Virus record (IMG/VR): IMGVR_UViG_3300035698_001432
Coordinates: 1 to 20,847 of that record
From: a virus
DNA length: 20,847 nucleotides
Strand: one strand, 5' to 3'
Shown one piece after another: positions 7,214 through 7,803 of this stretch. The notes under the pieces are model-generated. The model saw only the letters and a program-made list of their open reading frames with translations. It searched no databases and was not told the DNA's origin. A program made the translations under genes and the position numbers. How positions within the stretch are numbered: the first letter of the stretch is position 1; the number at the start of each line of letters is the position of its first letter.

Positions 7214-7381
7214 CTAATCCTCTCGCGCCTGCCTTCGCATGTCGTCTAGCTCGTCCAACACCTCATGCATGTCTGCTAGGTCATTGATCGAGTACGTGCC
7301 GCACTGCAAGTCCTTCAGGCGGCATAGGGCTGGATCGGCGACACAGGGCCGCCAGACTCGCCAATCGACTCCTCCGGGTTC
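7214..7381 (-). CDS. Frameshift extension of the tail assembly chaperone
   Basis: After the TGA of the chaperone gene (7317-7315), the -1 frame stays open to a TAG at 7216-7214. It encodes a C-terminal piece reading LKDLQCGTYSINDLADMHE followed by an acidic/Arg-rich end (33 codons after the crossover Leu). The pattern 'C---L-DG--S--D-A-MNE-LD' is that of short DUF6889-like proteins found between chaperone and tape measure in related phages. No ATG or GTG lies upstream in this frame near the junction. The only TTG (7309-7307) has AAGGA one base away, too close to serve as its ribosome-binding site. A programmed -1 frameshift producing a 196-residue fusion (7214-7803) is therefore the best reading; a sequencing error is the alternative. 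The start coordinate given is the upstream candidate slip site. Confidence 0.72.
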   Translation of the reverse strand, partial: EPGGVDWRVWRPCVADPALCRLKDLQCGTYSINDLADMHEVLDELDDMRRQARED

Positions 7382-7803
7382 TCGCTCTTCAACGTGAGCC
7401 CCAGCACGCCGCTTGCGAGTAGGGCGCTGATAAAATCGGCAAAGTTCGCCTCAAGGACGAATGCCGCGATCTGGTACTTGAAGAAGACGCCATCACCACC
7501 AGAGAAGTCGCGCTCGAAGTTCACACGCTGGCCGTTGATGTTCACGCCCTCATCACTACAAAGCGTCTTGATGAGATCAGCCATCGCCTCAGGCGGCATC
7601 GCTTTGCCCAGCGCCTCAATCGCACCGGAAAGGACATCGCCCTGATCAATCGTCTTATCTCTCAGGTAGGACATGATTGGAGCAATCGAGTGCATCACAA
7701 CAGGCATGATCCGGGTTTCAATGCCCAGAGCCTTTGTTGCGGGCATCTGGGTCACTCGAACCTGTCTACCTGCGATCGTTCGCGACTTATCTTCGCAAGC
7801 CAT
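7315..7803 (-). CDS. Tail assembly chaperone, short form (zero frame)
   Basis: 162-residue protein between the tube and tape measure genes, the invariant location of tail assembly chaperones, which hold the tape measure and recruit tube subunits. The sequence (RTIAGRQVRVTQMPATKALG near the N-terminus, LEANFADFISALLAS near 122-136) fits the helical chaperone families of DUF3277/DUF3383-type myophages. Its C-terminal 25 residues are Pro/Gly/Ser-rich, as expected for a linker crossing a frameshift site. It starts 2 bases after the tube gene stop. The long form is described in the separate extension entry. Confidence 0.85.
   Translation of the reverse strand: MACEDKSRTIAGRQVRVTQMPATKALGIETRIMPVVMHSIAPIMSYLRDKTIDQGDVLSGAIEALGKAMPPEAMADLIKTLCSDEGVNINGQRVNFERDFSGGDGVFFKYQIAAFVLEANFADFISALLASGVLGLTLKSENPEESIGESGGPVSPIQPYAA
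7345..7381 (-). promoter_or_regulatory. Candidate -1 slippery sites and stimulatory stem
   Basis: Two near-consensus heptamers are read in the zero frame. G-AAC-CCG is at 7381-7375 and C-GGC-CCT is at 7351-7345. Each has the A-site CCN codon able to re-pair in the -1 frame but a mismatch at the first base of the heptamer. Twelve bases after the first heptamer, GGCGA and TCGCC can form a 5-bp stem. Neither heptamer is a textbook slippery site, so which is used, if either, is uncertain. Confidence 0.4.

What the first reader, a model, noticed from the sequence alone, without database searches (positions are those of the whole stretch)
7214..7803. Tail assembly chaperone with an apparent -1 frameshift extension
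The 162-residue chaperone ends at a TGA, but the -1 frame continues with a plausible 33-codon extension resembling DUF6889-like proteins and ends 5 bases before the tape measure gene. No credible start codon with a proper ribosome-binding site exists for the extension alone. Chaperone frameshifting is widely conserved in tailed phages. What is less usual here is the slip site: the two candidate heptamers (GAACCCG at 7375-7381 and CGGCCCT at 7345-7351) are non-canonical CCN-type sites, with a possible 5-bp stem after the first.
Basis: partly seen in the sequence, partly recalled or inferred. Interest (0 to 1): 0.6.

Follow-up and report, generated by a model that had tools for sequence, protein, structure and literature searches.

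The report
Tail chaperone with conserved -1 frameshift

Summary
A Phage_TAC_15 chaperone (7803-7315, minus strand) is followed in the -1 frame by a domain (phrog_4364, DUF6889-like) that lacks a usable start codon and ends 5 bases before the tape measure gene. All relatives read in detail (84 non-redundant, from GenBank phages, IMG/VR contigs and one MAG) have the same -1 arrangement. Aligned to the window, all carry N-NU UUN at one codon, where the chaperone fold ends: 42 as heptamer U_UUU_UUN, the others as U_UUU or U_UUR alone. The window has GAU UUU AUC (7437-7429), a four-U tetramer. The shift therefore adds about 72 residues, not 33. A hairpin 6 nt after the tetramer covaries in one group of relatives; the window's own is not significant. 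A -1 frameshift with a GTTTTT motif is already published for related phage families, and KPP10, an example with that motif, has a Phage_TAC_15 chaperone. Verdict: new member of a known kind, with a less common slip site. Nothing was tested experimentally.

The parts
7315..7803 (-). Zero-frame ORF: tail assembly chaperone, short form, 162 aa
   Evidence: PF21822 Phage_TAC_15, 59.9 bits against cut-off 22; phrog_1613 E=3.5e-14; model pLDDT 85.8, fold matches to phage tail chaperones
7432..7435 (-). Proposed slip site T_TTT (zero-frame codons GAT TTT ATC, 7437-7429)
   Evidence: N-NT TTN at the aligned codon in all 85 non-redundant sequences, window included
7214..7450 (-). -1 frame ORF, open from 7450 to TAG 7216-7214; no ATG/GTG/TTG upstream of the conserved domain
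7217..7435 (-). Frameshifted part of the long form, 73 codons from the re-read Phe: linker plus helical domain
   Evidence: phrog_4364 E=2.5e-13 at residues 27-72; DUF6889 22.4 bits, under its cut-off of 23.9; model with confident helices from about residue 25
7398..7425 (-). Possible stimulatory hairpin starting 6 nt 3' of the tetramer, -13.1 kcal/mol
   Evidence: Same position as covarying hairpins in relatives; in the window not significant by itself (P=0.21)
5964..7208 (-). Tape measure protein, 414 aa, starts 5 bases after the -1 ORF
   Evidence: phrog_8125 E=6.4e-18 and other tape measure PHROGs
7806..8234 (-). Tail tube-like protein (KPP10_Orf10 family) upstream of the chaperone
   Evidence: PF11681 E=4.2e-12, phrog_280 E=4.4e-34

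Best explanation
The locus encodes two forms of a tail assembly chaperone. Most ribosomes read the zero frame to TGA 7317-7315 and make the 162-aa short form. A minority, with tRNA-Phe on UUU (7434-7432), slip back one base onto the overlapping UUU (7435-7433), continue in the -1 frame (Phe-Tyr...) and make a fusion of about 196 aa: chaperone fold, linker, small helical domain (phrog_4364, DUF6889-like). By analogy with lambda gpG/gpGT, many short forms would coat the tape measure protein and a few long forms would bring in tail tube subunits through the extra domain. Shown here: the gene arrangement, the conservation of the -1 ORF and of the U run at the end of the chaperone fold, and the lack of a start codon for the extension. 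Inferred: that slippage takes place, its rate, help from a downstream hairpin, and the roles of the two products.
For: Same -1 overlap in every relative read in detail. At the codon aligned with the window's Phe 7434-7432 all 85 non-redundant sequences have N-NT TTN, even in GC-rich genomes that otherwise prefer GAC and TTC. 44 of 44 representative extensions match phrog_4364, 41 of 42 chaperones match Phage_TAC_15. No ATG/GTG/TTG in the window's -1 ORF before the domain, and none giving 46 aa or more in 38 of 83 loci. The chaperone model is ordered up to about residue 130 (U run at codon 124); the zero-frame tail is not. Tetramers U_UUU and U_UUC shift in E. coli when a stimulator is present (PMC4066793). 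Covarying hairpin 6 nt downstream in a group of relatives. Published -1 frameshift with GTTTTT motif in related phage families (PMC12846349); in KPP10 that motif reads GTT TTT CAA in frame, in a Phage_TAC_15 chaperone.
Against: No experiment or proteomics. The window has only a tetramer, a weaker kind of site than a heptamer, and its own hairpin is not better than shuffles (P=0.21; z=0.08 for the 60-nt region). Substitution patterns in the overlap do not clearly separate the frames. No close DNA relative of the window was found.
Confidence: 0.85

Rival explanations
1. The -1 shift happens at the first reader's CCN sites (GAACCCG 7381-7375 or CGGCCCT 7351-7345), giving a shorter extension.
For: Both lie in the overlap where the two frames are open. 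C_CCG tetramers shift slightly above background in E. coli with a stimulator (PMC4066793).
Against: Not conserved. CGGCCCT lies inside the phrog_4364 match and after the conserved VDWRVW. GAACCCG is 18 codons past the U run; in L028, L044, L045, L065 and L086 the zero frame has already stopped by the corresponding distance.
Confidence: 0.05
2. The downstream ORF is a separate gene translated on its own, by internal initiation or by coupling to the chaperone's stop.
For: Some database records annotate it as a separate gene (PP101 orf66, Myduc gp50, phiEcoM-GJ1, Erebus). 45 of 83 loci have some ATG/GTG/TTG that would give 46 aa or more.
Against: In the window the first ATG/GTG/TTG is a TTG leaving 31 aa, which would cut the domain. 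38 of 83 loci lack a suitable start, and start positions vary between loci. It does not explain the conserved U run.
Confidence: 0.05
3. The frame break is a sequencing or assembly error and the true gene is one continuous frame.
For: The window is an IMG/VR metagenome record without a close DNA relative found.
Against: The same -1 break is present in every relative read in detail, including isolated, sequenced phages.
Confidence: 0.02
4. The frames are joined by RNA polymerase slippage on the T run rather than by ribosomal slippage.
For: Several relatives have 6 or more Ts at the site.
Against: The window has four Ts, and the U_UUR relatives only three before A or G; such short runs are not known to make RNA polymerase slip (general knowledge).
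Confidence: 0.02

Closest known systems
Tail assembly chaperone -1 frameshift of Vandenendeviridae/Andersonviridae (Pseudomonas phage Adele, PMC12846349); KPP10 examined here as an example with the motif
   Same: KPP10's chaperone is also Phage_TAC_15; U_UUU in frame at the equivalent codon (GTT TTT CAA); -1 extension between chaperone and tape measure gene
   Different: The KPP10 extension belongs to phrog_4625, not phrog_4364, with only a weak hit of the window's extension to phrog_4625 (E=0.066); window site is GAT TTT ATC
Lambda gpG/gpGT tail chaperones (PMC5009743)
   Same: Short form plus -1 frameshifted long form, encoded just upstream of the tape measure gene
   Different: No sequence relation shown here; the lambda product ratio of about 30:1 is not measured for this phage
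Z_ZZN tetramer frameshift sites of IS1/IS3-family transposases (PMC4066793)
   Same: Single U_UUU tetramer; stimulatory structures described 5-8 nt downstream, as for the hairpins 6 nt downstream in relatives
   Different: Transposase genes, not tail chaperones; a stimulator is not established for the window
Myophages of the Chaseviridae (PP101, Myduc, phiEcoM-GJ1) and Rhizobium/Vibrio/Psychrobacter phages with the same locus
   Same: Same two domains in the same -1 arrangement
   Different: Mostly U_UUU_UUN heptamers; the window, pOW20-A (L007) and Vibrio phage 1.016.O (L017) have U_UUU followed by A

Membership tests
Phage_TAC_15 tail assembly chaperones (PF21822) | Match above the curated cut-off over most of the profile | tested here: met
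   59.9 bits against 22, profile 2-122 of 127
Phage tail chaperones made by -1 programmed frameshifting | Chaperone gene directly upstream of the tape measure gene, overlapping a -1 ORF without its own start | tested here: met
Phage tail chaperones made by -1 programmed frameshifting | Slip site conserved among relatives | tested here: met
   N-NT TTN at the aligned codon in all 85 sequences
Phage tail chaperones made by -1 programmed frameshifting | Both products made, long form a minority | not testable with these tools
   needs a reporter or proteomics
X_XXY_YYZ heptamer slip sites | Both tRNAs can re-pair in the -1 frame | tested here: not met
   window GAT TTT ATC: only UUU can re-pair
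Z_ZZN tetramer slip sites (PMC4066793) | Four-base Z_ZZN motif in the zero frame | tested here: met
   T_TTT 7435-7432 in frame
Z_ZZN tetramer slip sites (PMC4066793) | Stimulatory element at a suitable distance | tested here: inconclusive
   hairpin 6 nt downstream, -13.1 kcal/mol, P=0.21 in the window; covariation in relatives
DUF6889 (PF21829) | Match above the curated cut-off | tested here: not met
   22.4 bits against 23.9, E=1e-4; 30 of 44 relatives match at E<=0.01
phrog_4364 | Significant match over most of the profile | tested here: met
   E=2.5e-13, profile 4-47 of 54

The most novel reading that the evidence does not exclude
In this chaperone family the U_UUU_UUN heptamer and a single-tRNA U_UUU or U_UUR tetramer have replaced each other repeatedly, and in tetramer lineages a hairpin that begins 6 nt downstream makes up for the missing half. 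Tetramer lineages average -11.8 kcal/mol for a hairpin at that position against -6.9 in heptamer lineages (P=0.002, not corrected for kinship), but on a tree only 3 independent pairs remain, so common descent is not excluded.
Probability: 0.3. Interest if true: 0.45.

Novelty: new member of a known kind. Interest (0 to 1): 0.3.

Why it matters
It shows that phrog_4364/DUF6889, listed as of unknown function and often annotated as a separate gene or not at all, is most likely the frameshifted C-terminal domain of the tail chaperone, so the annotation of many phages could be corrected. The family also offers a natural series of slip sites, from heptamer to tetramer and with or without a hairpin, for testing what a bacterial -1 site needs.

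Tried and rejected
A search with the chaperone alone found no relative in viral contigs; a six-sequence alignment was too diverse to search with, a three-sequence one worked. Overall folding downstream of the slip is only slightly stronger than in control windows (mean z -0.95 against -0.52) and the window's 60-nt region is not unusual (z=0.08), so no general stimulator is claimed. Counting substitutions by codon position in the overlap did not separate the frames. Profile searches of solved structures and Foldseek against the PDB gave nothing convincing. No Rfam match and no tRNA in the window. No paper in the library mentions DUF6889.

Full report
What is there. The window is a 20,847-base virus record. 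Its tail genes run on the minus strand: sheath (9353-8247), tube-like protein (8234-7806), chaperone (7803-7315), tape measure (7208-5964). The chaperone is a clear Phage_TAC_15 member (59.9 bits, cut-off 22). The frame one base back is open from 7450 to TAG 7216-7214 and carries a domain that matches phrog_4364 at E=2.5e-13 and DUF6889 just under its curated cut-off. It has no ATG, GTG or TTG until a TTG that leaves 31 residues.

Relatives. A protein search with the whole -1 ORF found 387 phage records; an alignment search found 80 IMG/VR loci and one locus of interest in a MAG (L108; a second MAG locus, L109, matched over 14 residues only and was not used). In every locus read in detail the domain lies in the -1 frame of an overlapping chaperone ORF. 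Two loci that first looked different (L054, L091) show the same arrangement once the right frame is taken. 44 of 44 representative extensions match phrog_4364 and 41 of 42 chaperones match Phage_TAC_15.

Slip site. Each zero-frame chaperone was aligned to the window's, to see what stands at the window's Phe codon 7434-7432. The aligned position and the nearest NNT TTN agreed in most loci; the alignment had a gap there in L036, L008, L010, L012 and L024, where a nearby T run was taken (for L010 and L024 the run CGT TTT TTT ACG), and was off by 3 and 5 codons in L017 and L075. Among 83 non-redundant sequences, the window included, there are 42 U_UUU_UUN, 16 U_UUU followed by A, 23 U_UUR and 2 other U_UUU; L091 (TCT TTT ACA) and L054 (CCT TTA GTC) make 85. 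Given each genome's codon use and the amino acids present, the product of probabilities over 44 representatives (under 70% identity in the extension) is about 10^-33. This is an illustration, since the site was chosen with the pattern in mind and the representatives are still related. GC-rich phages that otherwise prefer GAC and TTC keep GAT TTT here, the window among them (estimated use of T-ending Asp codons 0.38 and of TTT 0.19).

Against the CCN sites. CGGCCCT lies within the phrog_4364 match and after the conserved VDWRVW. GAACCCG lies 18 codons after the U run; in L028, L044, L045, L065 and L086 the zero frame has stopped before that distance.

Protein architecture. The chaperone model (pLDDT 85.8) is ordered to about residue 130, the U run being codon 124; most of the zero-frame tail is poorly ordered. 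The extension model has an uncertain start and confident helices from about residue 25. The chaperone's fold matches are phage tail chaperones, among them the annotated tape measure chaperone of Citrobacter phage Moogle. The extension's matches are small proteins of PM1, phiEcoM-GJ1, PaP1 and PAK_P1, at weak E-values.

Stimulator. In 24 loci (17 distinct sequences) a 6-bp hairpin starting 6 nt 3' of the tetramer pairs in every cell, with changes on both sides at 3 of 6 pairs, which 0 of 500 shuffles reach. Hairpins at the same place stand out against shuffles also in L007, L017, L072 and L079 (P 0.003 to 0.05). The window can form one (7425-7398, -13.1 kcal/mol), but 21% of shuffles do as well. 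Tetramer lineages have stronger hairpins than heptamer lineages (P=0.002), but only 3 independent pairs remain on a weakly resolved tree, so this is a hypothesis.

What is known. Sharma et al. 2014 (PMC4066793) found that U_UUC and U_UUU tetramers shift in E. coli with a stimulator, U_UUA and U_UUG only weakly. The lambda gpG/gpGT system is reviewed in PMC5009743. For Vandenendeviridae and Andersonviridae a conserved -1 shift with a GTTTTT motif in the chaperone gene is published (PMC12846349). KPP10, whose record gives the genus Nankokuvirus and no family, was taken as an example with that motif: it has a Phage_TAC_15 chaperone with GTT TTT CAA in frame, a U_UUU tetramer at the equivalent place, and an extension of another PHROG. 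The finding is therefore a further member of a known kind; what is added is the right slip site, the longer extension, and an identity for phrog_4364/DUF6889.

Certainty. The two-frame arrangement and its conservation are shown; the frameshift itself, its efficiency and the roles of the products are inferred.

Noticed in passing
L003, L015, L021, L023 (PP101, Myduc, phiEcoM-GJ1, Erebus): The -1 extension is annotated as a separate hypothetical gene with a start chosen inside it; in several other records (for example L011, L016, L025) it is not annotated at all.
   Followed up: yes
window 5964-7208 (-): The tape measure protein is short (414 aa), which would suggest a short tail.
   Followed up: no
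L010, L024 (Vibrio phages K359, K208): Genes on the opposite strand, among them one annotated as superinfection immunity and one as HNH endonuclease (K208), sit between tube and chaperone genes and between the extension and the tape measure region.
   Followed up: no
alignment A3: L032-L075, L099, L063, L065, L070: Covarying GGCCAG...CTGGCC hairpin starting 6 nt after the U_UUN tetramer.
   Followed up: partly
window 3338-4285 (+) and 11514-12785 (+): Long open frames (315 and 423 aa) opposite the structural genes, probably a by-product of high G+C content.
   Followed up: no
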